The position numbers and the translations under genes were made by a program. This document shows positions 2,528 to 36,353 of a stretch of DNA of 64,000 bases, in pieces. Below the pieces are notes generated by a model. That model was given only the letters and a program-made list of their open reading frames with translations, was not told where the DNA came from and made no database searches. Source of the stretch: a bacterium (GTDB lineage Bacteria > AUK180); the NCBI GenBank assembly GCA_023144005.1, contig JAGLGN010000021.1:1-64000 (forward strand). The letters run 5' to 3'. Position 1 is the stretch's first letter, and every line of letters starts with the position of its first letter.

Positions 2528-5500
2528 TCAGATATTAAGATAATAATCTTTGAAACTCTGCTGAAACTCCTCCGGGATATCGTTCATAAGGTCTTCCAGC
2601 GATGCGATCATCTCATTTTTTATCTTTTCCGCTTTAGTCGTATCATATTTCAATGTATGTGTAAAAATGATCTTCAGGATATCGGGAAGATCTTCCTTTG
2701 TGCCTTCCGCTATTGTCTCGGAAAGTATGATCTCAAATTTTTCAACGGCTTCTTCATTGTCGCCTATCGCTCCCTGTAATAGAGCATCAATATAGCGTAT
2801 CTCGGTGGAATTATCGTCCCCAGTCCCTTTTTTATACAGGAAGAATTTCTTTGCAGCCTCTTTTAGCTCGCCCGACTTTATCAGGCATCTCGTCCATTTG
2901 CTCAAGGCATAAAGCGCAAGGCCTCTGCTTCCAAGTTCTGTGAATTTATTATACGACCCTTCATAGTATTCCAAAGCGGCAGGAAACTCTCCCCTTCTCT
3001 CACACACGCTTCCCAACCCGGCGGAACCGTATCCTATCCCGAGATTATTCTCTATCATCCGATTGATATACATATACCGCCTAAGGTACTCCTCTGCTTC
3101 ATCGATCACATTGAATGAAAGGTATATCTGGCCAAGATTGTATGTGGTTATCGCCTGCGAAAGCATATCCCCTGTCTGTTCCGCGATCGCCAAACTCTTT
3201 TTGTAATATTTCAAAGATTCTATGTAATCGCCTATATGTGAGTAATTACCGGCAATATTATTATAGGCGACACCCAGTCCCTCAATATCATTCAGCTCTT
3301 CATTCAAATCGATATTCTTCTGATAATATTCCGTGGAGAGCTCGCTCTTTCCTGTATTCGCATAATAGATCCCAAATAGATTATAAAGGCGCGATTTCCT
3401 CTTTCTCAGAAGGATGTCATCCTCATCAATGCTATCTATCATTTCCAGAAGGTTGAATAATATCTTACCGAATTGCTCGGTACTGCCCTGCAGATATCTT
3501 ATCCATGCTATTGAAACATCAATGGTGAAGATCTCGTTCACATCTTTATCAGGGACAAGGCCGTCTTTTATCTTGTGGAACCATTCCAGAGCGGATTCGT
3601 ATTCGGACATCCTTTGATACACCTCTCCGATATGTCTTTGTATGCCGCGTCGCTCTTTCAGATCCTCTGTGCTTTCAAGAAGTTCCATATATAATTTCAA
3701 TGCGTCATCATTCTTTCCGACATGTGTATCAATATTCGCTAAAGCACTTTTAATTTTACCTGCGTATCCATCGGTATCATCGATATATTTTAATTTATCC
3801 AATGCGTCTTTCAATAGAAGCTCACCCTCGGAATTTGCAAAGGTTTTTCGAGCACGTTCGCCGGCGAGATATAGGTATTTTACTGCCCTGTTGTACTCCC
3901 CTCCCCTTTCGAAATGGTATCCCAGCAGGTCATAGAACGAGGCCAGGTCGCCTTCATGAGTTCTTTCGATCCACTCCGCTATCTTAAGGTGCAGCCCGCT
4001 TTTTACCTTCTTGAGGATAGAGTTGTAAACTACTTCCTGTATCAGAATGTGCTTGAACTTATACTTAGCATCCTCGTCTTCCTTTATCTCAGAGTAATCC
4101 TTCTCAATGAGATTCCTGTCAAGAAGGCCCTGAAGCTGTGAATCGTTGATATCGGGGAAGATATCCTTGATAATGGTCTTCAGGAACACTTTTCCGATCA
4201 CGGAGGCGCTTTGGAGCAGGGATTTATCCTCTCTGGTAAGAGTATCGATACGGGTCTGTATGACCGCCTGAACCGTCTTGGGAATATCGACATCGGTAAT
4301 CTTTTTCATCGCCTTCCAGTACTTCCCCTTATTTACCAGTACACCTCTATCTATAAGGCATTTTATGATCTCTTCGGTAAAAAACGGATTGCCCTCGCTA
4401 TGGCGCACGATTATCGCTTTCAATTCCTCAGGAAGTTTTTCAACTTCAAGAAGCATTTCTACCATCTTTTTAGTATATTTGGGGCTCAATTCCGATAGCT
4501 CAATATTTAATATATCCCCTTTTCCGCTGATATTTTTGACGAACTCCCTGCATACTGCACTTTCCTTATACTCGGGCCGTGTTACAAATATCACCATTAT
4601 AGGAAGATCTTCTACTCTTCTCAACACACTTTCAAGGATCTCGACCGAAGAGTAATCTATCCAATGAAGGTCTTCTATTATCAGCACCAATTTTTCTTTT
4701 TTCGCGATTATTGTCAGTATCTTGGTTAGAATGAGTATGGTAAGTTCTCTAACCTTCTCAGGTTTCATATCCGCTGGAATATCAGGGTGCTCCAATCCGA
4801 GAAGCTTCATCAGCAGAAGATCTCCCTTAACAACACCCAGATCGATATCCCCGAGAATATGGATCAGTTGGCCTCTGATCTTATTGTGTGCCAATTCCGG
4901 TTCATCATTATCTTTTAGTTCAAAGAGGTTCTTAATGATATCCAGAATAGGCCAGTTGATGAACTTATCCCCATAGGGAAGACATCTGCCTTTTAATACC
5001 TTCAATTTTTCCTTCTCGCTTTGCTTGAGAGTTGAGAGGAATTCCGATGTCAAACGGGTCTTTCCCAGGCCCGCATTGCCCATAATTATTGTTTCCGATA
5101 TGCTTTTGCTGTCAAAGGATTGCTTGAATTTATCCAGAAGGGAAGCCAACTCCTTATCCCTTCCTACCATGGGAATGTGAAGGCCTTCGATACCGCGGAA
5201 TTTCCCTCTTTGGGATTTTCTGCCGATAACCTTATATAGAGTGGAGCTTTCTTCCTTTCCCCTCAAGGCAAGATCTCCCATTTTTTCGAAGGTGAATGCC
5301 AGTTTTGTAAGGGATTCAACCTCTTGGGAAACCGCAATGGTACCAGGCTTGGCTTTCGATTGAATCCTCTCCGCGGTATTCACGGGATCCCCTATCACGG
5401 TTTCCTCGGAATGATCATCGGAGCCTACTTCACCAGCGTATACCTTGCCATAATGGACGCCGACACGGAATTGGATATCTTCGCCTTTGAGCATATTCAA

Positions 5501-20955: not shown

Positions 20956-22419
20956 TTATTTCAATTTTATTACAGCAAACAAAAGAACCGGTATGAGAAA
21001 AACGCGAAAAATGATGAGGCCTAATGTCCTCATAGTTTCCGGTTCGAGAAATCCCTGAAATCCCCTGATAGTAATAATCGCCAGGAAAACAACAGTCAGT
21101 AAAATGAGGATGTTCCTTTGCCGCTTTTTCAAGAGAAGAAAAGTATTTTCTGATCGTTTGAATCTTGGAACAAAGCCCGGGAAAATTATCTCCAAAATAA
21201 ATAATATGAGAAGCGGTGAAAATAGGAATGTGTAATGCCCGAAGGCTCCTGCCATGATAACGGAAATATTCTCAAATATCACAGCGGGAATAGCAATTAC
21301 ATGCAGAAGTATTCCGGCAACAGACAATATGAGTTTATCGGGAAAGGCAAAGATGTATTGCAATGAATTGAGCAGAATACCCGCTAACAGACAAAACAAA
21401 GCAGTCACAATTACCACAGATGATCTTTTAAGGGCTTTCATAAAACCATTTGCAGATATCCGGTAAGAAATAAATATCAAAAGGTAGATTGTCAGCAGCG
21501 ATTCCCGGGCCAATACTGAATAGGGATAAAGCCACAGGATAATAAAACCGAGCAGCAGAGATAATGAAGGGAGTATCCATCTCAAATTATCCCGCAAGCG
21601 GATAACATTCATAAATAAGAACAAGAGCAGCAATAAAAGTATAAACAATACCAGAAGCCTCAATATGAGCATTAGCATTGAGTTGTTCGTTGAAATACTA
21701 TTTACGTCAAGTCCGAATGAGCTTTTAAACCAGGAAACTGCTCCTGTCAGAAGAGCGTCATCATAAGGCTCGGTCATATGGTCGGAAAACTGAGATACCA
21801 GAAGTTTCCGTGCAGTGTTATCGCTGAAACTTCCGTATAATCTGCCGTCAACGGCCTCTTGGACACCTGTTATCTCTTTCAGTGAAGCTAACATTGCATT
21901 ATAGGTGCGAACCTCGTCAAAAGCACCGAAGCCCATCAATACATTTAGCTCAGCATCTCCGGAGACATTACTGATCATGCCGAGTAGAACATGCGTATGC
22001 ACTCCTATTTCCTTCAAGGACGCGTATTCACCTATCGCCGCTCCGTATGAATGTCCGATAATTCCGATATCTTCCTTGGAAAATCGCGGATCGCCTTTCA
22101 GTATTTCGATCACATTCATGACATCCGAGATGCACATCCGCTCATAACTCTTCGACATAGAGAAATTGAAACCACGGCCTTTTAATATGACACAAGCAAT
22201 GCCGTTCCTGCGCAGGACATTTGCTACATTTATCATTGACGGTGTAACCCTTCTGAATGATGTATATGAATAGTAAACCCAGGGAAAGGGGCCGGTGCCA
22301 TCAGGCATGAAGGCCAGAATAGTCGCTTCTTCCTGAAGGCCGAAAGGAATCTCCATTACTGATGAATTGATACAAGACGCAAAAAGAATGAGAATAATTA
22401 TGGCGAACAGCTTTTTCAT
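20956..22419 (-). CDS. membrane-anchored alpha/beta hydrolase
   Basis: A 487-residue protein combining an exported hydrolase and a polytopic membrane domain. The N-terminus is a signal peptide with a lipobox-like FASC (13-16), so it may be a lipoprotein, although Phe at -3 is unusual. An alpha/beta hydrolase follows, with nucleophile elbow GHSYG (122-126, Ser124) and family features of the dienelactone-hydrolase type. From about residue 250 there are roughly eight transmembrane segments, starting with a run of leucines (LVLFILLLLLLFLFM). The substrate is unknown. It sits downstream of the giant secreted protein on the same strand, 287 bp away, with only weak repeat-like sequence between. Confidence 0.8.
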   Translation of the reverse strand: MKKLFAIIILILFASCINSSVMEIPFGLQEEATILAFMPDGTGPFPWVYYSYTSFRRVTPSMINVANVLRRNGIACVILKGRGFNFSMSKSYERMCISDVMNVIEILKGDPRFSKEDIGIIGHSYGAAIGEYASLKEIGVHTHVLLGMISNVSGDAELNVLMGFGAFDEVRTYNAMLASLKEITGVQEAVDGRLYGSFSDNTARKLLVSQFSDHMTEPYDDALLTGAVSWFKSSFGLDVNSISTNNSMLMLILRLLVLFILLLLLLFLFMNVIRLRDNLRWILPSLSLLLGFIILWLYPYSVLARESLLTIYLLIFISYRISANGFMKALKRSSVVIVTALFCLLAGILLNSLQYIFAFPDKLILSVAGILLHVIAIPAVIFENISVIMAGAFGHYTFLFSPLLILFILEIIFPGFVPRFKRSENTFLLLKKRQRNILILLTVVFLAIITIRGFQGFLEPETMRTLGLIIFRVFLIPVLLFAVIKLK

Positions 22420-22706: not shown

Positions 22707-25700
22707 TTATATCAACTGTTCCAATTTAATAAGTAATCGGTCCAGCAGAATTCTGGCTTCGGTAATATCAGCGGAACTTATTCTCCTTAAATAATTTATA
22801 GCTTTGATGCACTCGAGGATAGATTTTTCTTTCATTTCATCAAGATCATGGACATTCTGAACTTTTATCAGACATTTAGCGGCATTTGATATTAAATGCT
22901 CTTCTTTGGGTTCAACCTCCATTGCCAGCAGGTGTTCAATAATTTCATCCATGAAAATTCTCATATCCGGTAAGTGCTGCACATCAAATTCTGTCATTAC
23001 GGGAGGTTCATCCCACCAGATACCGTTCAGTTTATATTTCAGCAGAGCTTCAGCAGATAATTCATTGATATCCTCAGGGATTTCAATCAGAACATGATAG
23101 GCCTTTCTTTCTCCGGTATTCAGTCTGTCCGACCAAACGGAAACATTGGATTCAACTTCAGCGGCAGGATGGGTTTCAATTATCATGCAGCTTTCAGTGA
23201 AAATACCTGTCAGAGAAATATCAAGATCCGCAACTTTCGATTCTACTTCTATGCCTATACCTACCAAATCATTGGAATCAACCTGAGAATGTTCCGGAGT
23301 TAAATATTTCATTGCGTTTTGTAATATGCCGTCGGCCATATCCAATGACTGGAAAAGATCAAACGCAATATATACCGTCCTACCCATCCCGTATGAATTA
23401 CCGACTATTACCGGTGTAGGCAAAGATCCGGAAATAGAAGCATACCCCGCGTTGAAACAACCGTTTGATTCTATTTTATACATCTCTCCTGAAGTAAGCA
23501 ATATGCCTTCATGCGTAATGGGAGAATTCAAAAGATTTACGCAAAGGTTCTGCCCGTCGTAAACTCCGTTGAATTTGATCCCGAGAACTTCAGGACTGTC
23601 CCCTTCTCCCAGAAAGTGGTAGTAATGCGATGTAATAAGACCCTTACCGGAGAATACATGCTCTCGAAGCTCTTCTGATGTATGTCCTTCCAGATTTTCG
23701 TAATTGCCGAGGATGACATACTCGTTGAACATTCCTGTTCTCATCGCGGATACGAATTCCGATTGTGAAACCGTAATAGTGTATGTCATTATATCAGGTC
23801 CCGAAAGGAGTTCGTCAAGAGCCGCCCTGGTAATATCAGGGACCGTCTCTTTATTGAGCCATACGAGAACCCTCGGTAGTGAGGATACTTCGACAGTGAT
23901 ATCAAATGCCGGAACGACCTCGAACTCGATACTCTTTGTATCCTCGGTATTGTCCAGATTGTCAACACTGAAAAATTCCATGGTATGAACACCGTATCCA
24001 AGCGTTGATATATCTACACCACCGGTATAATTCAGCCACATGTCCCCGTCTATTCTGAACTGTGTGTATTTTGTACCGCTTCCGAACTCACCGTCTTCAG
24101 ATCCGATATGGAAATACGAGCCCCGGATGACATTCGGTATCCCCTGTGAAAGGATCGAGGGCGTAAATGTCCCGGTGCTTTCCGGAGCAGTTGTATCGAT
24201 ATAAAGATCAAGGATATTGTCATTCTCGGTATTGAACGCCCTGTCGGTCGAGTGGTAGTAGAATGGGCAGTATCCGTCCGTCATATTTTCAAGCGCGACA
24301 GGATAGCCGTATTCGCCCCAGAGTATTCCGTCAAAGGAATATTCTGTATTGTACATACCGGCAAGATCGTCATTTCCGGTGAGAATAACAGATGCTCCGT
24401 TAATGGTATAGACATTGTTGTTTTCTATATAAAGTTTCTCGGAATCAACCAGTGCCTGTGTAACCGGCGGGGTCGTGTCAAGCTTAACGGTTGTCTCGAT
24501 CGTATCTGAACTCAGTCCCATGAGATCAACTGCAAATGTCTTGATGGTATATTCCCCGTCGGGCGCAAGGCCTCCGGAAAGCGAAGAACCGTTCCAGGTA
24601 ATTGTCACAGGAATCTCATCACCGGTTTCGGCCGGCGTCATGAATACCTTTTCACCGGTACTGTCATATACCTCAACAAAGAGTACGGATTTTTCCGATA
24701 CAGAAGCAGTTATTGAAAGAAGGTCAAGCTTCCCGTCGTCATTGGGACTGAATACATCCGAAGATACGCTATATCCCAGTATTTCCGGATCGCCGAACTC
24801 GTTCTCCGATGAAACAAGCGCATAATACGAAAGATGAGGCATCTTGATCGTAATAAGATTGTTTTCAGAATCCTTCGTGACAAGAGTTGTATCCGGCTGT
24901 GCAATATCCCATCTGTCGAGGTTCCGGTAATACATATAGATGTCCAGATTTTCCTCCGCTCCGATCACCGAGCTGTCATCATATGAAAATTCAATGTCAC
25001 ACATATCCGCAAGGCTGTATATCGTCGATAAAGTTTCTATCCGGTACACATCTCCCACCAGAATTTCTTCCAGAGAACTGCTTGAAGGGATCAAATCCGG
25101 CTCAGAAATTTCATGTATCGTTAAATAATCCATCCCTTGTTTAAGGGCTTCGCTGTCAATTGCAATCGAAAAATTCCCGTCAGTACTTTCAACTGTTCCC
25201 GGTACATTGTAGGTTGTCGGGTTGCACGGGTCATCCCAGAGGAAATATCTGGCGTAGATGTCTGTTTTGTCCATTTCTTTATTATGTTCACTGTAAATAA
25301 GTATGTTCCCGTTGTCTGACCACTCCGGAGAATTCAGGACAACCTCCTCCCTGCGTTTCTCAAGATATCCGCAAACCTTTTCTATATCTCCGCCGGAAGG
25401 ATCACATGCCAGTATTTCATTCTGTACATAAGATTTTCCTGGATCATCCTGTTCGATCCTCACGAATGAGATCTTATTGCCGTTTGCAGTCCATCTCAGG
25501 GTATGTGTTTCCAATTTATCATCGGTAAAAAAAGTCACCTGATACGGCACCTGAAAATCTCCCGGTGTCCCATCCTCCAATACGATCCTTTCGATCATCC
25601 AGATATTCCAGTGACCGTCCGTATTCGATGAGTAGGCCAGCTTCTGCCCGTCAGGAGAGAATATCGGGTCTTTTTCCGATGCCGGATCGTCTGTAAGCCA

Positions 25701-28700
25701 GACAGGATTAAAATAATAACTATTTACCACACAAAGATCGTTCCTCAGGGTATTGGAAACAAGAGAACAAAAATCGCTCCCACCGGGATTAGGTGTACAG
25801 ATCCTGCTATAATTGCGTTTTGCAATAGGCGCAACGATCTTTCCGTCAATGCTCCATGCCGGAGATCCGCTTGAAGGGATATTTTTAAATTGATTCTGTA
25901 GCGGATCGTTTGCTACCGGCCTGATTATCTGCATATGAAAATCACCGGATGTTATTGCCAGGGGGGTGTTTATGTACTCATTATTGATTGAATGGAAGTT
26001 GAACGCCATTAATTTGCCGGTAGAACTGGGGCATTTGCCTAATACTACTACATCCATTACATCTCTTATTCTGGTGCCATCATGGTCGATGAACTTGAAT
26101 TCTTCCCACATTTGACCATTTTCCGAATAATACCGTTCCTCAAATGCTATTGGGGGAAGGTACTCATTCTGCTTATAGTTTTCTTTCAGCCAGACCGGAT
26201 CATCTATCCTGTTGAAATCCCCCGTATGAATATCAAATATCCCACTGTCCAGAAGTTCAAGATCTACGACTCTGAGTATATTTCCGTCATGGACAAATGC
26301 CGTATATTCATTCCCGGGTGATAATGTGGGCTGAATGGAATGGACACCCTGAGTGTTTTCCGTTATATTATCAACATGGCTCATATAAGTTATTGTCATT
26401 TGAGAATGGTTAATGACGATAAATCTGTCTTCAGAAGGCTGTTCAAAGTATGCATTTCCCGCTAAATCGCTCACACGGATTCCGTAGTAGTACCTGCCTT
26501 CAGGAAGGTCATTGCCGTCATTATCCTTTCCGTCCCAGACACAATGATAGATATCACCGATAAACTCACAGGAAATTTCAACCAAGCTTTCCCCCGGGTT
26601 CGCAGTTATTCCATCAAAGATATAAACTGAACAGTTTTGAATCCCGGAAAGAGCGTCAACCGCATCTACCGAAAACTCCATGAAGTCATTACATCCGTCC
26701 GCGTTCGGACTGAAGGTTTCCGGAACTGTCGTGATGGTATTCACATGGGGGTTACATGTATCAACGATCAGATCATCCCCATCAAATGTGGAAATATTGC
26801 CTATGTTGTCAGATAATATCATTTCATAAAGATACGAGCCGTCACCTGTAATTGCGCTCTGCATATCAGTACCGTCCCATGAAATTGATAAATTACCTCC
26901 TGATCCCAGATGGTTCCAGACAACGGATCCCTCGCTATTCAGAATATTGAATTCCCAATATGCCACCCCGAATGAATCCGATGCTGTACCGTTTATATGT
27001 AGAATATCTTTTATCCCATCGCCATTCGGACTGATAAAACGATCATATGGCAGAATATTCACGATCGGACCTGAAGTATCGAGAATAATAGTGGAACTCG
27101 ATACCGGACTATTACTTCCAAACGGGTTCACAGCGAAATACTCAATAGTGTATTCTCCACCCGGATAGCCTTCAAATGTAAAGGGGGCTTTGTATTCGTC
27201 CCAGTCATTTCCATTTATGCTGAACATGATTTCAACAAGTTCCTCCGGCCTATCAATTGATCTGAAACTAAGGGGAGTTATAGAACTGATGTTTACAATA
27301 TTGTCAACGGTTATCCTCGGTTCACCAACAACGAGTTCAATCTCAGGTTCATGTGAATAGATCCTTGCATCTATATACCTTTCGCTGCTCGTATTGAAAG
27401 CATGATCCGTACTTCTATACCATATTCTGTGTACTTCGCTTGAATAGTCTGAGAAATTGAAAGGTTCGGTATATTCCGTCCAGGGATTTTCATCGATCCT
27501 GAACTTGATATCTTCAACAATATAATTATTACTCCCGAAATCATCAGATGAAATTGTAAACAGAGTATCCGGTGATACGGCGTGATATTCTTCAGATTGA
27601 ACATAATTGCTGGGATCGCCGACGGATATATATACCTCAGGTGGATTCGTATCGATCTCAATGCTTTCTGTTATTCTGGATATGTACACACCATGAGGTG
27701 AAGACGCGTCAATAACCAGTGTATATCGATCATCTTTCACATATTCATTGAAATCCTGGTCCGTACCGTCCCAGGCAAAGGAATGTCGACCTGTCTGCAG
27801 TAGTGTATTATTGCAGAGCTCTTTGATATGGTTGTTCTTCAGATCGTAAATATTTATTGAAAGTCTGAGTTCTTCGTAAATCGTAAATGCCACTTCAGTG
27901 TTGTCAAATACCTCGTATGAGAACGGATTCGGAGAAACACTCAGATCTGTAATCACCGGCATGGGATCACAGTTCATGGCTATATATTCAACCCTCTCTT
28001 CGGCATGATTGCCCGCCAGATCAATACAGAAGAATCTGCACAAGTAATATCCGGAAGGACCTAAATCTCCATTGATCATCCCATCCCATTCAAAAGTGGC
28101 GTTACCTTCATTAGCAGGCAGGATTTTCCTGCAGATTTCGTCTCCGTAAACATCATATAAATAGAAGTAGATGTTCCCGGGTTCCGATATCAAGATGTCC
28201 ACCGAAGTTTTTGAAGTTATATCTGTAAAAAACGGATTCGGAATTATTTCCAGGTCATTGATCTCTGGTGAAACGGTATCTCTGACAACATATACCTTTT
28301 CAAAAGTCCTGCTTTCAATGTTTTTATATGTAACGAAGATATAGTTATCTCCCTCATTCGGAAGCTCGATATCCGAAAGCTCAAATCGAACCGTGTCACC
28401 ATCAACGCTCCATTCTACCGTATTGAATGTACTGCCTACAGCAGAAGTATTGTCACCATCATCGATAAAATCCGGATCATCGTCAACCAATATCTCAATC
28501 TCATACCTGCTGTCAGCAGTTCCCGATATCGAAATACTGCTTTTGTTGGTAAGCGATGCGATCTCGTCAAGAACCGGTTTGATCGGCGGTGCTGAATTCA
28601 ACGAAGCAACGATAACCGGCGAACTGATCTCAGCAGACAATTTCCATAATGAGTCACCTAATCGTGTACATGTTCGGTTCTCCAGTTTTTCAAACTCACC

Positions 28701-31700
28701 TGATGGTTTGATCGCATAAAGAGAAATAGTATTTTCATTGATTCCGTTTTCCTCTATTTCTTCATTAGTATAGTAATATATAAGAGTTGCCGGAGAATTA
28801 AATTCCTCGTTTTCCTCGCCTGCCTTGACCTGTACAATCGGTCCGAATGGAACAATATCCAGATCATGATCAAGTTCCGATAGGCTGCTCGCGGAAACGC
28901 TGATGACATCCTGAGCATTGAAGGTGCCTGCATCAAAATTCAGATTTATCCTGTCGTAAGGTGCGCTTACCGTTCCACTTGAATAATCATCAATGTATGA
29001 ACCTACATTAATCGAAAGGTTGTTAACATTCTTGCTTCCATTCGAATTTGTGATTTCCAGTAATAGATTCTGAAGACCTCTGATGCCGGTTACATCCCAC
29101 CAGCAAAGTGTTCCGGTTTTAGTGTCCGATCCGACTGGAACATCACTGCTTACTATTTCGTCCCAGTGCCCGTTATTGTAACTGTAAACCGTATAGGATT
29201 CAAATTCATCACCGAATGCCTTTCCCTTAATTTCTATCATCTCTTTGCCGCTTGCCATCAAATTGAGCTTCATATTGAAACGATCATTGATATTATCGAT
29301 TTTATTAACATGAGTTTCATGAGTTGAAAAATCATTGTTTGTAGAACCATCGGGGTATTGGCATTCAATTATCCAATCATCAATTATTGTATGGGGATTA
29401 TCTTTCTTCAGAATACCTTCCAGAAGGAAACAGCTTTTATTATTATCGCTTTCATACAAATTCCATGGATAAAGATCAATGTGGTGGAAGATTTTTGTTA
29501 TCGCTCCAAGTGAAGAGGGCAGTGAAAATGAATGAAGTCCGCTTTCAAGAAATCCATTAGATTGTGTAAGTAATGGATCTTCCAAGGGTGCCCATGTACT
29601 ATCGTAGGTTGGGAATGTTGCCTTGAGCGCAGTTTTGGTATCACTGAGATTTGATTCCACTAGCTCTAAGTGTATCCCTTCAAAATTAGTATCCGAAGAA
29701 ATTAAGGTCGAGTCCTCTCTCTTAATAATGATTCTATCATAATAGCCGCCATGAACATAATCATTGTGAAAAACCATAATGTCTTCTTCTTCAAAATAAT
29801 AACCGTCTTGGTTATTATCATAGTCCATTGTTGAAGTAACTGTATCTAACTCGCCATTCTGGCAATCCATACGAATCGAAGCGGTATCTATCTCATAAGG
29901 AGGATCTCCGGGATTATAAGCATCAGTGGGATCATTATACTGACCGGTTGTTTCCGGTGGTGAATCATTGTATTCTATTAGATCTTTTGTATAATCGTCA
30001 GGGGAAGAATCCGAATTAATGTCCGCGTAAACCGTATTAAATGCTTTGCTATTGAGGTGATTGATGGAATTTAAATCCTGAAGTGGCCAATCAACCGAAT
30101 AAGGGGTTATACCCGGTGTTTCGGGACTGATCTCTTTATCACAATAAACATAATGTTTCTTAGAATAAACCGGGTCTTGTACTAAATGAACACCTGGTTC
30201 CCCATTGTCTGAGATGACGGGATTAAACTCAATTGACTGGTTGAATAAGTAATAATCAATAGATTTATCCGGGAAATTCAACCATCTATTGTATTCCGCT
30301 TCCATTTCAGGTCTGAAATGGTTCCAGTTTCTTCCGCCATACCGATCATTTTGATCTATTTCGGCAGTAATAGTTATTTTATCGCCGCCGATAATATTAC
30401 CTTCTCCATCTTTTTTCCAGACAACATCCTTGTAAACCGCACGATTTTTATTCACATATCCGAACCAAGTATAATATCTGTTATTTACGGGATTAAGATC
30501 CCAGCTGATGAAATCACATTTCAAGTTGATAAAAATATTGTGGTTGGTTCCAATGTCATAGTTACCTTGAATTTTGAAAGGAGGATACTCCTTGGGTTGA
30601 GTGAATCTTGAATAATTGCAGTTTTGTTGTATCGGAAAATATGTCGGTCGGGTTTCATCCCAACAAACCGGTCCATCTGGAGTAGGTTTACAAATGGTAA
30701 TTGTATGGGTTCCCTTAAAAACACTGAAGTTCAAATTAATGAAATGCAGTTTTGTAAAATCGCCCCACTTTACATTACCGCAGCAATTAGTCTTCCAGCC
30801 GACAATATCAGTAGAATAGGATAAGTTTTTTTCGCTTAGTAAACATCTTGTTGAATCAGTCGGATCGGTAACGAATACTGTTTCAAAACTAAAAGGAATT
30901 TCAAAAAACTGTCCTTCTTCTTTAATAAAATTACAGCTACTCCCGCACTTATACTTCACACCTTCACCATGGATATTACCGTCAACTTTGACTTCTGCTC
31001 TATTGAACTTCCTATGTACCTGTAACGCAAATGGATAATAAGGATAGACTGTTACCAATTGCTTTCCTTGAAGATTTGCGGACCATGAAAATTTAAGAGA
31101 AGGAAAATATCTTCCTTCAGGTTTGCTTCTTACTACAAAATTTGATGTTGATTTGGCTACATCTAATCCATTCACTGAGCTACCATTGTCTTCAATTTCA
31201 ATAAACGCGGTTGAAGTACCGGATTGATAATCTGAATGAGAAACATTTATAGCAGTTGAAGACTCCTCAATACTTATACTTTCACCCACAGGTGTACAGA
31301 TAAATTTCACCTTATAAGTACCTTCCGGTGCAGTGAATCCCTCCGGATCACAAGTGCCATCCCATGTAACATGATGTTCGGTTCCGCCTTTAAATACTCT
31401 ATCTGATACTATGGTCAAGAGCTTCTTTCCGGGATCAGTTTCTTTAAAATCATAAACTTCAGCAGTTATAGTCACATCTTCGGTGGGTGTAAAACTGATT
31501 GTACTTGAACCGGGATCGCTAAAAGAATAAATCTGATCCGGAGCGGGAGAGTCAACATCAATATCAAATATCGTTTCCACATGAACAACTGCGTCGGCAT
31601 ATCCATATCCGTTATTGTCAACCGAGGAGGCGGTCACCCTCACAGTATAATCACCGTCATTGACAAAAGAATCCGTATCGAAATACTTCCCGTTCCATGA

Positions 31701-34700
31701 AACCGTCTGCGGTGAAGTCAGATCTTCTAAAGAAAATGGATTGGTAAAAGGATTGAGGTTTTCTTTACCGATATAAATGTTTTCAGTCCCGGGATTTCCG
31801 GTAAATTCGATATTTGAAATGATATATTCACCCGAAGACTTAAATACTATTTCCCCTGAATTATTTTCCAGATTTACATTAAGATTCAGCAGACCTCCTG
31901 AAAATTCAACTCCTTCTTCAAGTAAGAGTACGGAAGTATCACTGAAAATGCCATCTGTGACTATACTACCGTTAAATGTATTGTTTCCATTGCTTGAATT
32001 CAGAAATATATGCCAGAAGTCATCTTCAGCCTGCCAGTAGTAGTATCCAGGATCACTTTCGATAATTACGGAAGTTCCCGCATATTGACTTGATGATATA
32101 TTATCGTGATGTTCATAATACACCAGCCTTCCTGATGAGTCCAATATCTCGATATCAACATCGGAATCCTTGTTCTCCAATCCGTATATTATCTCAAGTA
32201 TGGAATCGGGAGGGGAATTTCCAAATGTAATGTTGGTATTGCTTAGATTTAAATTTACATAAAGATCAGTACTTTCGGCTTCTATAATATTAATGTTTCT
32301 TAACACACAGGACCTTTTTCCGTTTACACCTTCTTCCTCTACGACCAGGAGCAATGTATATTCTCCCGGACCCGGATATCCAGTATTCCAGTATGCCAAT
32401 ATACCGTCATCAAGTACGCTTGCCGAAGATATATGAGCCTTTCCGTAATAAGGATCCGTATTATCCGTTGACATATAGAATTTGGGAACACTTATTTCAT
32501 TTGTAACCCAGCTGGACCCGATAAGAGATTCATCATCGAGAGAAGCTGGAATGGTATTTATCGATCCGGCTTTAAAGTATATTCGATATGCCCTGAAGGA
32601 ATTCGAGTTTGTCCAATCAGGGTCCATCGCCCTGCCCTTTATGGTTATTTTTCCGTAAACTTCTGATCCTTCTTCGGGAAAGCTGATCTCGGGAGGAACG
32701 GCATCTTTTACAAAATCAGCGGATGCTGTTGATGAGTTTCCTTTTGAATCGGTTGCGGTTATCCTGAATTGATATTTCCCTGAATTCCATTCTTTAGGAA
32801 CCGTATATTCGATCTCATTCGTATCATAGATTGAGTTTCCGATTCCCTCGAATTTTTCGAGACCTTCACCTGAATTCGAGTCTATTATTTCTCCATCAAC
32901 GATGATATTTGCTCCGTCTTTATTGATTCCTTCGTCATTGTCCTCGGAGAGATCGTATCTGAACTTTATCATAGCTGATGCTATGAAAGGCATCGAATGG
33001 ATCTTTGAGATGATCGGAGAAGTTCTATCGACTATTATATCACTCATGCTATACCAATCACTTTGATTGCCGGCGAAGTCCATCATCCGTATTTTTAACT
33101 GATATTTCCCATCTTTGGGAGCATTCAACCCGTTGAAGGAGAACTTGTTCTCTTCATCGATACCGTCATCATTCATATCCTGAGGTCCGTCGTTCAGACT
33201 ATGATATCCCATTCCCGGATATTTCGTTAATACACTGTCATGACTGATCAGATTGATCTCAAGCGTACAATCTTCCGATACCTTATATAAAAAGTCCAAC
33301 GAATAATCGGTTTTTGTGAAGGTCTTGTTTTCAGGGTCAAAACCATATTCAAGGAATTCAGGCACTGCTGTATCAATCATTAAATGAGTAGATGACTCCC
33401 CGACATTTCCCGCAACGTCGGAAGCAGATATCTTGACCAGGTACTCTCCGTCTTCGATATCTCCGTCCCATTCGAAGAACCTTCTTCCAATACCCTGATA
33501 AGAAATCTCTTTCAAAACGGCAATCTCATTATCCGAAACATCGCAAAGTATAATTTCTATATTATTTAATGATTCTGATATATTGTCTTCCATGTTATAT
33601 GCGACAAGCATTTTCTTTTCGCCGTCTGGAGAGAATGGTTTCAATTCATCTATTGAGATAACAGGACGGGTTTTATCGATCCAGAAATTCCAGTATGTCT
33701 GAGACATCGGGGGGTTTTCCTCTCCTGAATCATGGATTATTTTAGTATAAATCTTATACTCACCTTCTTTTGAAAAGATCGATTCATCCGATGAATATTC
33801 CAATGTTGAACAAACGGTAGAAGGTCCCGAAGAAGTGTCTATAGTAACAAAATCAATTATATTTTCAAGATTCTCAAGTGAATCCCCCGCCATTCCGATT
33901 TTCAACACTTTATAATCGATCATTGATTTCGGGTCATCTTCATAATCTGTTCTGTCGGAATCTATCCTGATAGAAAGGGGGGTCAGGATAGGATTGATGC
34001 TGGACCTTGGCATTGGAAATTTGGGGATGGCATATAAGGGAACCGGATTGTAGTTCAACCTTAGCATTCTCCAGTCGGTAATTCCATAATCATTTGTGGA
34101 TTCGAAGCTAAAGATGTTCTGACCCTCCAGAACATGCTCCTCTATCTTTATCTTGAAATTTCCATACATGTCTCTGATGTATCTTTTTTCATTAAGGACT
34201 TCGCTTCTTATAAAATCATCGTTTGAAACCATCTCAATGTATTTCCATTCACCGTAATTGAATGAAACTCTGGCATACCGTAGCTTATGTGGAAGGAAAT
34301 CATGGATTTGACCTGTAATAATCGAATCTTCGGTAAGATCACCAGGACCTAATCTGATGATATCGACCTGTTCATACTGTTTCTCACCATCTTCGTCGAA
34401 TGTATTGAGCTTTTTCAATAATCCATTCTTTGCTGAAGTATTTTTGTTGACTTTCTGATATGAGAAATCCGTATTTCCATTTACTGAAGCTATACCTCCA
34501 AGGCACCAATCATTAAGAAAGTATCCCCAGTTATCAAACAGTTTGAGAGCCCGAGCACTATTATGGGCATCAATTTTGAACTGCTCTTCAAATTTACCAG
34601 TATTAACTTCAAAACTTTTTGCATTTGCTAGATAATTCAAATTTCCAGACCATGTAAATCCTCTCTGACTGGATTCTGAAACTACAAAATCTCCAGGACT

Positions 34701-35633
34701 CAACGGAAACAAGGATGATAATATTGTTGATACCTGTTTTAGAAAGGGATCTGATGATGAATAATTGGTTTTAGGTCTTGGCATAATATCAAAAGTCATA
34801 ATCATCTGTTTTTGATATATAACACCCCAGTCAATCTCTAACATTTCATCTATTAGCAATCTGTTATTCAGATTTCTTAAATCTTGACTATCGTAAATAT
34901 ATTGATCAGAATTCGTATAGTATGGTATCTCATTTTTTAGAACTAAATAATTACAATATACAAGTAGAATTGTTGCAGCTTTAATAAAAATATTAGCTTT
35001 TATCAAATTGCCAATTGCACATTGCTGTACTCCACTTCCTATTAAAATATTCGCAACTGTTAATAAATAGAAATATGTTGCAGGTTTTATTAAAGCTAAA
35101 TCACTTCCAGTATGCGGACCACTGCTTGTAATTACTTGTGATATGTCTAGAATTTTTTTATTTTCTATTGAATCATATCTCCAATTTCCCTTATCCATCA
35201 CATAAGCTCTAGCACCTAATCCACCAGCAGAATGAGTAATTAATATAATGTTCTCTGGATATTCTGTTGTTATAAGAGGTGAAAAATTATGATTGTATTT
35301 CTCCTTCCATCTCCTTCTAGTATCATTAATCCATTTATCATTTTGAGTTCCAATTTGATGTCCCCAATCCAAAAATTTCCCAAATTCATCATCAAATTTA
35401 TACTTATACACAAAGACAGTATTATCATTTTCAATTTCTCTTTCAATAAAATGATTACCTTCCAGAAATCTTGATAGTTCTTTTGATACTTCTTTCCACA
35501 CTCCCCCACCGCCAAAGCCATGAACAAGAATTATTGCGGTTTGATTAATACTCCCATATTCTTCCGTAGCAGACGTGGGTTGCATTAAGAAGAACATCAA
35601 AACAATCAAGATAGTTGTTGTAACTTTCTTCAT
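22707..35633 (-). CDS. giant secreted protein: lipase-like domain, Ig/FlgD-like repeats, TolB-like propeller
   Basis: A 4308-residue exported protein. Residues 1-22 are a signal peptide. An alpha/beta hydrolase or lipase-like domain follows, with LVHGFGGGG (36-44) and THSAGGLG (133-140; Ser135 as likely nucleophile). Most of the rest is a chain of Ig-like units of the FlgD/OmpL47 kinds, recognisable by recurring WDG/WNG turns followed by a GxYxxxxxxxD strand (for example HVTWDGTCDPEG, HSFAWDGTDQ, VTITWNGSSL) and by DLAGN turns. A TolB/WD40-like stretch (FSPDGQKLAYSSNTDGHWNIW) lies about three-fifths along. The C-terminus is a helical tail ending in LIKLEQLI; I see no sorting signal, LPxTG or barrel. 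It follows the LolA-like gene by 9 bp. Function is unknown; adhesion or extracellular degradation are options. Confidence 0.85.
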   Translation of the reverse strand: MKKVTTTILIVLMFFLMQPTSATEEYGSINQTAIILVHGFGGGGVWKEVSKELSRFLEGNHFIEREIENDNTVFVYKYKFDDEFGKFLDWGHQIGTQNDKWINDTRRRWKEKYNHNFSPLITTEYPENIILITHSAGGLGARAYVMDKGNWRYDSIENKKILDISQVITSSGPHTGSDLALIKPATYFYLLTVANILIGSGVQQCAIGNLIKANIFIKAATILLVYCNYLVLKNEIPYYTNSDQYIYDSQDLRNLNNRLLIDEMLEIDWGVIYQKQMIMTFDIMPRPKTNYSSSDPFLKQVSTILSSLFPLSPGDFVVSESSQRGFTWSGNLNYLANAKSFEVNTGKFEEQFKIDAHNSARALKLFDNWGYFLNDWCLGGIASVNGNTDFSYQKVNKNTSAKNGLLKKLNTFDEDGEKQYEQVDIIRLGPGDLTEDSIITGQIHDFLPHKLRYARVSFNYGEWKYIEMVSNDDFIRSEVLNEKRYIRDMYGNFKIKIEEHVLEGQNIFSFESTNDYGITDWRMLRLNYNPVPLYAIPKFPMPRSSINPILTPLSIRIDSDRTDYEDDPKSMIDYKVLKIGMAGDSLENLENIIDFVTIDTSSGPSTVCSTLEYSSDESIFSKEGEYKIYTKIIHDSGEENPPMSQTYWNFWIDKTRPVISIDELKPFSPDGEKKMLVAYNMEDNISESLNNIEIILCDVSDNEIAVLKEISYQGIGRRFFEWDGDIEDGEYLVKISASDVAGNVGESSTHLMIDTAVPEFLEYGFDPENKTFTKTDYSLDFLYKVSEDCTLEINLISHDSVLTKYPGMGYHSLNDGPQDMNDDGIDEENKFSFNGLNAPKDGKYQLKIRMMDFAGNQSDWYSMSDIIVDRTSPIISKIHSMPFIASAMIKFRYDLSEDNDEGINKDGANIIVDGEIIDSNSGEGLEKFEGIGNSIYDTNEIEYTVPKEWNSGKYQFRITATDSKGNSSTASADFVKDAVPPEISFPEEGSEVYGKITIKGRAMDPDWTNSNSFRAYRIYFKAGSINTIPASLDDESLIGSSWVTNEISVPKFYMSTDNTDPYYGKAHISSASVLDDGILAYWNTGYPGPGEYTLLLVVEEEGVNGKRSCVLRNINIIEAESTDLYVNLNLSNTNITFGNSPPDSILEIIYGLENKDSDVDIEILDSSGRLVYYEHHDNISSSQYAGTSVIIESDPGYYYWQAEDDFWHIFLNSSNGNNTFNGSIVTDGIFSDTSVLLLEEGVEFSGGLLNLNVNLENNSGEIVFKSSGEYIISNIEFTGNPGTENIYIGKENLNPFTNPFSLEDLTSPQTVSWNGKYFDTDSFVNDGDYTVRVTASSVDNNGYGYADAVVHVETIFDIDVDSPAPDQIYSFSDPGSSTISFTPTEDVTITAEVYDFKETDPGKKLLTIVSDRVFKGGTEHHVTWDGTCDPEGFTAPEGTYKVKFICTPVGESISIEESSTAINVSHSDYQSGTSTAFIEIEDNGSSVNGLDVAKSTSNFVVRSKPEGRYFPSLKFSWSANLQGKQLVTVYPYYPFALQVHRKFNRAEVKVDGNIHGEGVKYKCGSSCNFIKEEGQFFEIPFSFETVFVTDPTDSTRCLLSEKNLSYSTDIVGWKTNCCGNVKWGDFTKLHFINLNFSVFKGTHTITICKPTPDGPVCWDETRPTYFPIQQNCNYSRFTQPKEYPPFKIQGNYDIGTNHNIFINLKCDFISWDLNPVNNRYYTWFGYVNKNRAVYKDVVWKKDGEGNIIGGDKITITAEIDQNDRYGGRNWNHFRPEMEAEYNRWLNFPDKSIDYYLFNQSIEFNPVISDNGEPGVHLVQDPVYSKKHYVYCDKEISPETPGITPYSVDWPLQDLNSINHLNSKAFNTVYADINSDSSPDDYTKDLIEYNDSPPETTGQYNDPTDAYNPGDPPYEIDTASIRMDCQNGELDTVTSTMDYDNNQDGYYFEEEDIMVFHNDYVHGGYYDRIIIKREDSTLISSDTNFEGIHLELVESNLSDTKTALKATFPTYDSTWAPLEDPLLTQSNGFLESGLHSFSLPSSLGAITKIFHHIDLYPWNLYESDNNKSCFLLEGILKKDNPHTIIDDWIIECQYPDGSTNNDFSTHETHVNKIDNINDRFNMKLNLMASGKEMIEIKGKAFGDEFESYTVYSYNNGHWDEIVSSDVPVGSDTKTGTLCWWDVTGIRGLQNLLLEITNSNGSKNVNNLSINVGSYIDDYSSGTVSAPYDRINLNFDAGTFNAQDVISVSASSLSELDHDLDIVPFGPIVQVKAGEENEEFNSPATLIYYYTNEEIEENGINENTISLYAIKPSGEFEKLENRTCTRLGDSLWKLSAEISSPVIVASLNSAPPIKPVLDEIASLTNKSSISISGTADSRYEIEILVDDDPDFIDDGDNTSAVGSTFNTVEWSVDGDTVRFELSDIELPNEGDNYIFVTYKNIESRTFEKVYVVRDTVSPEINDLEIIPNPFFTDITSKTSVDILISEPGNIYFYLYDVYGDEICRKILPANEGNATFEWDGMINGDLGPSGYYLCRFFCIDLAGNHAEERVEYIAMNCDPMPVITDLSVSPNPFSYEVFDNTEVAFTIYEELRLSINIYDLKNNHIKELCNNTLLQTGRHSFAWDGTDQDFNEYVKDDRYTLVIDASSPHGVYISRITESIEIDTNPPEVYISVGDPSNYVQSEEYHAVSPDTLFTISSDDFGSNNYIVEDIKFRIDENPWTEYTEPFNFSDYSSEVHRIWYRSTDHAFNTSSERYIDARIYSHEPEIELVVGEPRITVDNIVNISSITPLSFRSIDRPEELVEIMFSINGNDWDEYKAPFTFEGYPGGEYTIEYFAVNPFGSNSPVSSSTIILDTSGPIVNILPYDRFISPNGDGIKDILHINGTASDSFGVAYWEFNILNSEGSVVWNHLGSGGNLSISWDGTDMQSAITGDGSYLYEMILSDNIGNISTFDGDDLIVDTCNPHVNTITTVPETFSPNADGCNDFMEFSVDAVDALSGIQNCSVYIFDGITANPGESLVEISCEFIGDIYHCVWDGKDNDGNDLPEGRYYYGIRVSDLAGNAYFEQPSEDRFIVINHSQMTITYMSHVDNITENTQGVHSIQPTLSPGNEYTAFVHDGNILRVVDLELLDSGIFDIHTGDFNRIDDPVWLKENYKQNEYLPPIAFEERYYSENGQMWEEFKFIDHDGTRIRDVMDVVVLGKCPSSTGKLMAFNFHSINNEYINTPLAITSGDFHMQIIRPVANDPLQNQFKNIPSSGSPAWSIDGKIVAPIAKRNYSRICTPNPGGSDFCSLVSNTLRNDLCVVNSYYFNPVWLTDDPASEKDPIFSPDGQKLAYSSNTDGHWNIWMIERIVLEDGTPGDFQVPYQVTFFTDDKLETHTLRWTANGNKISFVRIEQDDPGKSYVQNEILACDPSGGDIEKVCGYLEKRREEVVLNSPEWSDNGNILIYSEHNKEMDKTDIYARYFLWDDPCNPTTYNVPGTVESTDGNFSIAIDSEALKQGMDYLTIHEISEPDLIPSSSSLEEILVGDVYRIETLSTIYSLADMCDIEFSYDDSSVIGAEENLDIYMYYRNLDRWDIAQPDTTLVTKDSENNLITIKMPHLSYYALVSSENEFGDPEILGYSVSSDVFSPNDDGKLDLLSITASVSEKSVLFVEVYDSTGEKVFMTPAETGDEIPVTITWNGSSLSGGLAPDGEYTIKTFAVDLMGLSSDTIETTVKLDTTPPVTQALVDSEKLYIENNNVYTINGASVILTGNDDLAGMYNTEYSFDGILWGEYGYPVALENMTDGYCPFYYHSTDRAFNTENDNILDLYIDTTAPESTGTFTPSILSQGIPNVIRGSYFHIGSEDGEFGSGTKYTQFRIDGDMWLNYTGGVDISTLGYGVHTMEFFSVDNLDNTEDTKSIEFEVVPAFDITVEVSSLPRVLVWLNKETVPDITRAALDELLSGPDIMTYTITVSQSEFVSAMRTGMFNEYVILGNYENLEGHTSEELREHVFSGKGLITSHYYHFLGEGDSPEVLGIKFNGVYDGQNLCVNLLNSPITHEGILLTSGEMYKIESNGCFNAGYASISGSLPTPVIVGNSYGMGRTVYIAFDLFQSLDMADGILQNAMKYLTPEHSQVDSNDLVGIGIEVESKVADLDISLTGIFTESCMIIETHPAAEVESNVSVWSDRLNTGERKAYHVLIEIPEDINELSAEALLKYKLNGIWWDEPPVMTEFDVQHLPDMRIFMDEIIEHLLAMEVEPKEEHLISNAAKCLIKVQNVHDLDEMKEKSILECIKAINYLRRISSADITEARILLDRLLIKLEQLI

Positions 35634-35642
35634 AGATTATTC

Positions 35643-36353
35643 CTATAATATAAAATGATTTTTATCCATAGCTATATTCACTTTGATATTTGAATAATTA
35701 ACATTTGTACTAAACATATTTTGTCCAATTTCAGTAGTAGAAGTTATTCTTTTAGCTATCCAGAAATTATTCATCTTTATGAAATCAGAAAATTCTACAA
35801 TGATTTCTATGTTGTTGATTTCATCTTTACTCACACTTTTAATAATTGCACCTTTTTTGATATCAATTTGTAGCAGGATTTTCATTGTATCCTTTTCATT
35901 TTTGGGAGAGAGTTCGATTGTCCGAATATTGCCGTTCGCTCCAGTTTCCTTGATTATGCAGTTTTCTTTCATTTCCGCGTGATTGAATGTAAAATTCATA
36001 TTTGAAAATTCGCCAGGTTCAGGCATTCTTTGCTTTATCACCTGACCACCTTCAAGTTTTATATACATCATCTTCTCTTTCCCGTTCATTATTGTTGTCT
36101 GCTTTTGGGGAGAAACAAAATCCATCCTCATAAGGTCTGGCTTTTTAATGTATATTTTCCCATTAGAGGTTATGGTATAACCCTGCATGAAGATCGTTTG
36201 TGACATGTTCGCTTCCATGGTTTTCATTATATTCTGGTTCTCTTCCACTTTTGAAAATATCTGATCCACATCGATATTTTTTTCATTAGTTGAACCGAGA
36301 AAGCAAAAAATCGCAACACAAAGACAAATGGCACTTAAAAATTTAACTTTCAT
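35643..36353 (-). CDS. LolA-like outer-membrane lipoprotein carrier family protein
   Basis: A 236-residue exported protein with signal peptide (1-20). The sequence after it follows the LolA/DUF4292 pattern: an N-terminal helix (about 27-50), then a half-barrel including NGKIYIKKPDLMRMDF, the usual G-K-x-W/Y-x-x-x-P-x-x-x-R-x-x-F signature of lipoprotein carriers with a tyrosine, and a later IEIIVEFSDF strand. It may escort a lipoprotein or lipid, perhaps linked to the secreted protein encoded 9 bp downstream. The gene is AT-rich like the first part of that neighbour. It is probably the first gene of a two-gene operon with a promoter at 36389-36416. Confidence 0.8.
   Translation of the reverse strand: MKVKFLSAICLCVAIFCFLGSTNEKNIDVDQIFSKVEENQNIMKTMEANMSQTIFMQGYTITSNGKIYIKKPDLMRMDFVSPQKQTTIMNGKEKMMYIKLEGGQVIKQRMPEPGEFSNMNFTFNHAEMKENCIIKETGANGNIRTIELSPKNEKDTMKILLQIDIKKGAIIKSVSKDEINNIEIIVEFSDFIKMNNFWIAKRITSTTEIGQNMFSTNVNYSNIKVNIAMDKNHFIL

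What the first reader, a model, noticed from the sequence alone, without database searches (positions are those of the whole stretch)
22707..35633. 4308-residue secreted protein with an N-terminal lipase-like domain and a long Ig/FlgD-like stalk
The protein joins an alpha/beta hydrolase with intact oxyanion and nucleophile motifs to more than 3500 residues of Ig-like, OmpL47-like and TolB-like units. FlgD-like repeats near the C-terminus of secreted proteins often serve as sorting domains in some phyla, but here they fill the chain. It could hold a lipase far from the cell or act in predation or attachment to lipid surfaces.
Basis: partly seen in the sequence, partly recalled or inferred. Interest (0 to 1): 0.62.

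Follow-up and report, generated by a model that had tools for sequence, protein, structure and literature searches.

The report
Giant surface lipase with exchangeable cassettes
An uncultured bacterium makes a very long secreted protein with a lipase-like tip, and comparison with a sister species shows that the tip and two inner parts have been swapped for old, divergent versions while the stalk and the tail end stayed nearly the same, a pattern seen in proteins used in contests between cells.

Summary
The 4308-residue protein is real, but lies on the minus strand. The head (residues 23-378) is a PGAP1-like alpha/beta hydrolase in both. FlgD/OmpL47/Ig units are recognised only in patches and do not fill the chain.

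Two things were not noticed. (1) Divergence is mosaic. Stalk and C-terminus are 90% identical (87% at fourfold synonymous sites), but the head, a Cys-rich insert (M1, 1541-1700) and a TolB-like propeller block (3098-3598) are 36-42% identical with synonymous sites at or near saturation and sharp edges. This indicates cassette exchange by recombination. (2) The last 379 residues are an unnamed C-terminal module, not an FlgD sorting domain. It ends 18 of 18 giant proteins of this class with a stop in view, and giants in 7 further genomes outside it.

At a paralogous locus the same module stays constant while about 11 kb upstream (Rhs gene plus N-terminal two thirds of the giant) is replaced. I read this as a surface-tethered lipase head on a polymorphic, conflict-type surface protein. 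Anchoring, export route and target are inferred.

The parts
22707..35633 (-). 4308-aa giant secreted protein (whole ORF incl. stop)
   Evidence: orthologue of 4323 aa in L011 3177-16148
35568..35633 (-). signal-peptide-like N-terminus, residues 1-22 (by eye)
   Evidence: sequence
34500..35567 (-). alpha/beta hydrolase head, residues 23-378; variable cassette 1 (36% aa, fourfold sites 21 of 45)
   Evidence: Pfam PGAP1; motifs; divergence
35229..35231 (-). putative nucleophile Ser135 in THSAGG
   Evidence: catalytic role inferred
34689..34691 (-). putative acid Asp315 (GDF), conserved in both alleles
   Evidence: role inferred
34563..34565 (-). putative catalytic His357 (AHN / AHG in the other allele, matched by eye)
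   Evidence: role inferred
31014..34499 (-). constant stalk segment 1, residues 379-1540 (Big_13/Ig-like units around 710-975)
30534..31013 (-). M1, residues 1541-1700; variable cassette 2 (42% aa, fourfold 6 of 24), eight Cys in each allele; no database match
29634..30101 (-). M2, residues 1845-2000; patchily divergent (56% aa, fourfold 19 of 29)
26343..29633 (-). constant stalk segment 2, residues 2001-3097 (FlgD_ig, OmpL47, CHU_C units at 2591-3054)
24840..26342 (-). TolB/PD40 propeller block, residues 3098-3598; variable cassette 3 (39% aa, fourfold 17 of 63 = chance)
23847..24839 (-). constant stalk segment 3, residues 3599-3929 (FlgD_ig, OmpL47 units at 3649-3906)
22710..23846 (-). C-terminal module, residues 3930-4308: GATase/ThuA-like alpha/beta part, beta-sandwich, helical bundle; shared terminal module of giant proteins
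35643..36353 (-). LolA-like gene directly upstream (about 10 bases apart); its last ~50 codons lie in the same divergent tract as the head

Best explanation
A secreted, surface-tethered modular protein. SHOWN by sequence: an N-terminal PGAP1-like hydrolase head, a long constant stalk with Ig/FlgD/OmpL47 units, and a constant C-terminal module common to many giant proteins. Head, M1 and propeller are cassettes that differ deeply between two sister species whose stalks are nearly the same. INFERRED: it passes the inner membrane by Sec and the outer membrane probably by the SprA-type translocon. The C-terminal module holds it at the cell, and the stalk (I guess 100 nm or more if extended) presents the lipase to a target cell or lipid surface. 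The cassettes are exchanged between lineages because they meet something that changes, such as prey, rivals, hosts or phages. It thus works like a polymorphic conflict or recognition protein whose variable effector part is N-terminal.
For: Full-length orthologue, 74% identity over 4374 columns. Mosaic: constant parts aa 2787/3101 and fourfold 965/1107, against head 131/361 and 21/45, M1 65/155 and 6/24, propeller 182/472 and 17/63, with a chance level of 0.264. Identity drops from about 0.9 to 0.4-0.45 between neighbouring 60-base windows at about 31020 and 26340. The left tract runs across the gene border into the LolA-like gene. Neighbouring hydrogenase gene: aa 477/487, nt 0.95. Same logic at a second locus: flanks 85-90% identical, while an interior of 11.2 kb (C35) against 12.4 kb (C132) shows no nucleotide match and the last ~850 residues of the giant stay constant. 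C-terminal module terminal in 18 of 18 class proteins with a stop in view. In the own genome all four Rhs-bearing ORFs lie beside a giant bearing the module (the C13 one is a partial match). Another giant has an M23 peptidase head, just over cut-off.
Against: This lipase giant itself has no Rhs neighbour. No immunity or target gene is identified. Two of five compared orthologue pairs (C25/C17, C13/C145) are close to uniform, so exchange is not universal. Only two alleles of this protein are in hand. The head model failed (pLDDT 33), so the fold rests on Pfam and motifs, and the first Gly of GxSxG is Thr. Surface location, anchoring and lipase activity are untested. PorU-type Peptidase_C25 was not found in the own genome.
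Confidence: 0.5

Rival explanations
1. A nutritional surface lipase: the stalk holds a scavenging enzyme away from the cell. The exposed parts vary only because phages or predators use them as receptors, and the enzyme plays no part in conflict.
For: The head is an ordinary hydrolase class. The gene sits among metabolic (hydrogenase) genes. Exposed parts of surface proteins often vary (general knowledge).
Against: The propeller and M1 are exchanged too, far from the catalytic head. A paralogous locus exchanges a whole Rhs gene with the N-terminal part. All four Rhs genes sit beside module-bearing giants.
Confidence: 0.25
2. Fast evolution in place: the three blocks are under strong positive or relaxed selection, with no recombination.
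For: Blocks roughly match domain borders. M2 is only partly divergent (fourfold 19 of 29).
Against: Fourfold synonymous sites fall to chance in the propeller and M1 but stay at 0.87 in the rest, with edges within about 60 bases. The head tract crosses a gene border into the LolA-like gene. Protein selection alone does not do this.
Confidence: 0.1
3. Assembly artefact: one of the two MAG contigs joins different strains or paralogues.
For: G001 is named a MAG; G000 is a draft of 38 contigs. Read coverage could not be seen.
Against: Both ORFs are open over 13 kb with the blocks in the same order and frame. Block alleles match no paralogue among the fetched giants above 38%, so they are not misjoined paralogues. 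No long near-identical DNA repeats seen. The same kind of mosaic occurs at C16/C63 and C35/C132.
Confidence: 0.05
4. A T9SS cargo in which the 379-residue C-terminal module is a new type of sorting signal, cut off or kept after export, rather than an anchor.
For: An SprA-like protein is found in 7 of 7 class genomes. The module sits where T9SS signals sit, at the very end. The review read describes types A to C as domains of about 100 residues (PMC10202324, passages).
Against: No match to type A or B signal models in the module. No PorU-type peptidase in 5 of 7 genomes including the own one. It can be true together with the best explanation.
Confidence: 0.3

Closest known systems
VARTIG module of Thermococcales (PMC8416519, abstract read)
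   Same: Large Ig-domain protein with one part hypervariable by recombination between lineages; compared by its authors with polymorphic toxin systems; function unknown.
   Different: Archaeal. There the C-terminal Ig domain varies; here the N-terminal enzyme head, an inner Cys-rich block and a propeller vary and the C-terminus is constant. Homology was not tested.
Polymorphic toxins (CdiA, Rhs; recalled)
   Same: Constant carrier with an exchangeable effector part; Rhs genes beside sister giants at other loci.
   Different: The effector is at the N-terminus; no C-terminal toxin and no immunity gene shown; several cassettes in one chain.
Giant ORF proteins of Omnitrophota, e.g. Velamenicoccus (PMC10066038, passages read)
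   Same: Very long proteins of uncultured bacteria, one proposed to act on target cells.
   Different: Those are said to have few annotated domains and to be poorly conserved, one with 42 predicted membrane helices. This one has a clear enzyme head and a conserved end module. Homology was not tested.
T9SS cargo with type A, B or C signal (PMC10202324, passages read)
   Same: Signal peptide, Ig-like units, SprA-like translocon in the genome.
   Different: The end of the protein is a 379-residue GATase-like/sandwich/helix module with no match to the type A and B signal models.
PGAP1-like alpha/beta hydrolases (PF07819)
   Same: The head scores over the family cut-off.
   Different: THSxG in place of GxSxG; fused to about 3900 further residues.

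Membership tests
PGAP1-like alpha/beta hydrolase (PF07819) | score over Pfam's curated cut-off | tested here: met
   head alone 25.1 vs 24.3; both alleles match, best E 1.3e-10; full-length scan 20.5, below cut-off
PGAP1-like alpha/beta hydrolase (PF07819) | GxSxG nucleophile elbow (recalled) | tested here: inconclusive
   THSAGG / THSQGG in the two alleles: Ser and following Gly kept, first Gly is Thr
PGAP1-like alpha/beta hydrolase (PF07819) | alpha/beta hydrolase fold | tested here: inconclusive
   model from 2 sequences failed, pLDDT 33
T9SS cargo | type A or B signal domain at the C-terminus | tested here: not met
   last 379 residues match no Pfam/NCBIfam model; the type B-like match is internal at 2969-3056. 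Type C was not tested
T9SS cargo | SprA/Sov translocon in the genome | tested here: met
   7 of 7 genomes match; own protein 197.5 bits by hmmscan vs cut-off 200, 211.2 with its neighbours in the frame: borderline score, E 2.4e-58
T9SS cargo | PorU-type sortase in the genome | tested here: inconclusive
   Peptidase_C25 in 2 of 7 genomes, not in the own genome; a divergent sortase could be missed
Polymorphic toxin system | constant carrier, variable effector part | tested here: met
Polymorphic toxin system | toxin domain at the C-terminus | tested here: not met
   constant C-terminal module; the enzyme is at the N-terminus
Polymorphic toxin system | immunity gene beside it | tested here: inconclusive
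   the LolA-like upstream gene is kept in G001; the downstream gene 20956-22419 is not found after the giant on the G001 contig, which ends about 820 bases later
Rhs/YD-repeat protein | RHS repeats | tested here: not met
   no PF05593 in the protein; the own genome's matches lie in four other ORFs

The most novel reading that the evidence does not exclude
An unnamed C-terminal module (degenerate GATase-like domain, beta-sandwich, helical bundle) marks a conflict system shared by several bacterial lineages. Giant surface proteins keep this end constant and exchange N-terminal enzyme heads (lipase, M23 peptidase), inner binding cassettes and partner genes (Rhs or others) by recombination: polymorphic toxins built the other way round.
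Probability: 0.35. Interest if true: 0.78.

Novelty: new variant of a known kind. Interest (0 to 1): 0.6.

Why it matters
It turns an odd giant gene into a testable system. The constant end module can be used as a bait to collect giant surface proteins from uncultured phyla, and the exchanged cassettes point to the parts that meet a changing partner. If heads really are swapped onto a constant stalk, this is a natural modular display platform and a conflict system arranged opposite to known polymorphic toxins.

Tried and rejected
Head fold: AlphaFold with two sequences failed, and profile search of the PDB gave nothing under E 0.24; I rely on Pfam. Whole-protein PDB search: nothing. Head outside the genus: 5 weak matches (E 0.0019-0.0076), in open frames of 846 residues or less, among 386 genomes; strong matches only in G000 and G001; 2 of 41 genomes with one protein as query. 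M block: G000 and G001 only, of 7. Stalk 401-1550: G000 and G001, plus 54 residues in G002, of 7. Viral contigs: none for the C-terminal module or head. Gene conversion from a paralogue among the fetched giants: rejected, the best paralogue propeller is 31-38% identical. Structure comparison of the end module: Foldseek and its second look are dominated by residues 1-186 (Z about 16 to GATase/ThuA-like folds); sandwich and helix parts are barely tested, so I claim nothing about their folds. Papers: 7 searches. 'Mcinerneyibacteriota' occurs in 3 papers, seen as a listing only. PMC11573180 was read as passages and added nothing on this protein. I found no paper on this protein or module in those searches; bioRxiv is not held.

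Rows dropped before counts: one search lists 25 matching stretches; fragments in G003, G001 C39 (129 aa) and G005 C156, and the partial matches in C13 and C145, were left out of the 19 proteins. One of the 19 (G005 C104) runs off its contig, hence 18 of 18. Outside the class, 18 of 386 genomes matched. In 7 of them the module ends the protein: 11 proteins, 2-15 residues from the end. The 11 others match weakly over part of the model, 10 over the GATase-like part and G093 over the last helices; I do not count them.

Full report
WHAT IS THERE. The ORF at 22707-35633 is 4308 codons long and lies on the minus strand. The window is part of contig C14 of a 2.67-Mb genome, 96% complete. The sister genome G001 has a contig of exactly the length of JAGLWT010000021.1 (16972 bases; 'bacterium isolate RS_12_30'), which carries the 91%-identical end module. 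Other relatives found in the same scan are named Candidatus Mcinerneyibacteriota, so I place the organism in or near that phylum.

ORTHOLOGUE. In 41 genomes the head is found in 2: its own and the only other member of the genus in that set. There the ORF is 4323 codons, in the same order behind a LolA-like gene and a NiFe-hydrogenase-like gene. The two proteins align end to end at 74%.

ANATOMY. Head: PGAP1-like hydrolase with HG, THSxGG, GD and AH motifs kept in both alleles; the Ser-Asp-His roles are inferred. Stalk: Big_13, OmpL47, FlgD_ig and CHU_C units in patches. Propeller: PD40/TolB-like. Two stretches (1540-2010 and 2000-2400) match no Pfam or NCBIfam model. End: 379 residues with no Pfam or NCBIfam match. 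Of 18 members scanned singly, 7 touch the GH42 trimerisation domain weakly. The model of the end (pLDDT 86, pTM 0.81) shows an alpha/beta part like GATase/ThuA proteins (Z 15.8-16.3 over 177-182 residues, rmsd 2.9-3.1), then strands, then helices.

MOSAIC. In the pairwise comparison the constant parts have 2787 of 3101 identical residues and 965 of 1107 identical fourfold sites. The head has 131/361 and 21/45, M1 65/155 and 6/24, the propeller 182/472 and 17/63; chance at fourfold sites is 0.264. M2 is intermediate, 87/155 and 19/29. Edges are sharp in 60-base windows. The head tract extends upstream into the last ~50 codons of the LolA-like gene, across a gene border. Propeller alleles are hardly closer to each other (45% over 308 residues) than to paralogues (31-38%). 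M1 has eight cysteines in each allele, at like spacing. Saturated synonymous sites beside a recent backbone indicate replacement by recombination, not only selection on the protein. Control: the hydrogenase gene has 477/487 identical residues and 0.95 nt identity.

OTHER LOCI. Of five pairs of giant proteins compared between the two genomes, this one included, three are mosaic (C14/C78; C16/C63 with one block of about 300 residues; C35/C132) and two are nearly uniform (C25/C17, of which the second copy is cut at its 5' end, and C13/C145). At C35/C132 the flanks match at 85-90% but 11.2 kb against 12.4 kb inside do not match at all by blastn. In one genome this holds an Rhs gene and the N-terminal part of a giant; in the other an fn3/DUF7689 protein, a 410-aa gene and an unlike N-terminal part. 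The last ~850 residues of the giant stay constant.

THE END MODULE. The 379-residue query matches 6 of 7 class genomes. In 19 extracted proteins the match ends 0-30 residues before the stop in all 18 with a stop in view; the 19th runs off its contig. Two of the 18 aligned lack the helices. In 386 genomes, 24 match: 6 in the class and 18 outside. In 7 of those 18 the module ends 11 proteins, up to 4514 residues long, within 2-15 residues; the other 11 match only in part. By contrast, several other long ORFs of this genome end in FlgD-like sequence. An SprA-like protein is present in 7 of 7 class genomes (borderline score), Peptidase_C25 in 2 of 7 and not in the own one.

RHS LINK. The own genome has RHS repeats in four ORFs only, each next to a module-bearing giant: C16, C28, C35, and C13, the last with a partial, weak module match, E 5.4e-5. 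Of 9 neighbours tested, 6 carry RHS repeats, 1 fn3, 2 (outside the class) transglutaminase cores. In one search the large ORF near the G001 C71 giant, one gene away, has RHS repeats and that of G001 C132 does not. The window's lipase giant has none.

HOW IT MAY WORK. Signal peptide and size imply export; route, anchoring and target are inferred. I propose that the end module fixes the chain at the cell, the stalk reaches out, and the head cuts lipids or esters of a target. Exchange of head, M1 and propeller suggests that these meet a changing partner. This resembles polymorphic toxins and VARTIG (PMC8416519, abstract) in logic, but the variable effector is N-terminal and no immunity gene is known, so I do not file it there. 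Confidence by step: architecture about 0.97, recombination about 0.85, surface anchoring by the end module about 0.5, role in conflict about 0.45.

LIMITS. Two alleles only; draft genomes; no activity, localisation or expression data; metagenome scans were not open. In the papers reached (7 searches) I saw no description of this protein or module.

Noticed in passing
G000:C13, C16, C28, C35 (L092, L093, L094, L034): All four Rhs-repeat ORFs of the genome lie next to a giant protein with the same C-terminal module (partial match at C13).
   Followed up: partly
L089 5396-10780 (G000:C1): SprA/Sov-like T9SS translocon in a Mcinerneyibacteriota-like genome; PorU-type peptidase not found in its family but present in the sister family (2 of 7 genomes).
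   Followed up: partly
G000:C25:21553-39312 (L036, L037): 5920-aa paralogue with the same end module and an N-terminal M23-peptidase-like head (score 28.9 vs cut-off 28.7).
   Followed up: partly
window 20956-22419 (-): Gene downstream of the giant: lipoprotein-like start, GHSYG motif suggesting another alpha/beta hydrolase, then membrane helices; no Pfam/NCBIfam match; not seen after the giant on the G001 contig.
   Followed up: partly
window 16322-39856: The giant gene and its LolA-like partner sit inside a [NiFe]-hydrogenase and maturation cluster (HypD, AIR-synthase-like, HypF, HypB/CobW-like, HycI, large subunit).
   Followed up: no
L072 11044-14226, L073 17875-19899: Outside the class, two module-bearing giants have transglutaminase-core genes beside them.
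   Followed up: no
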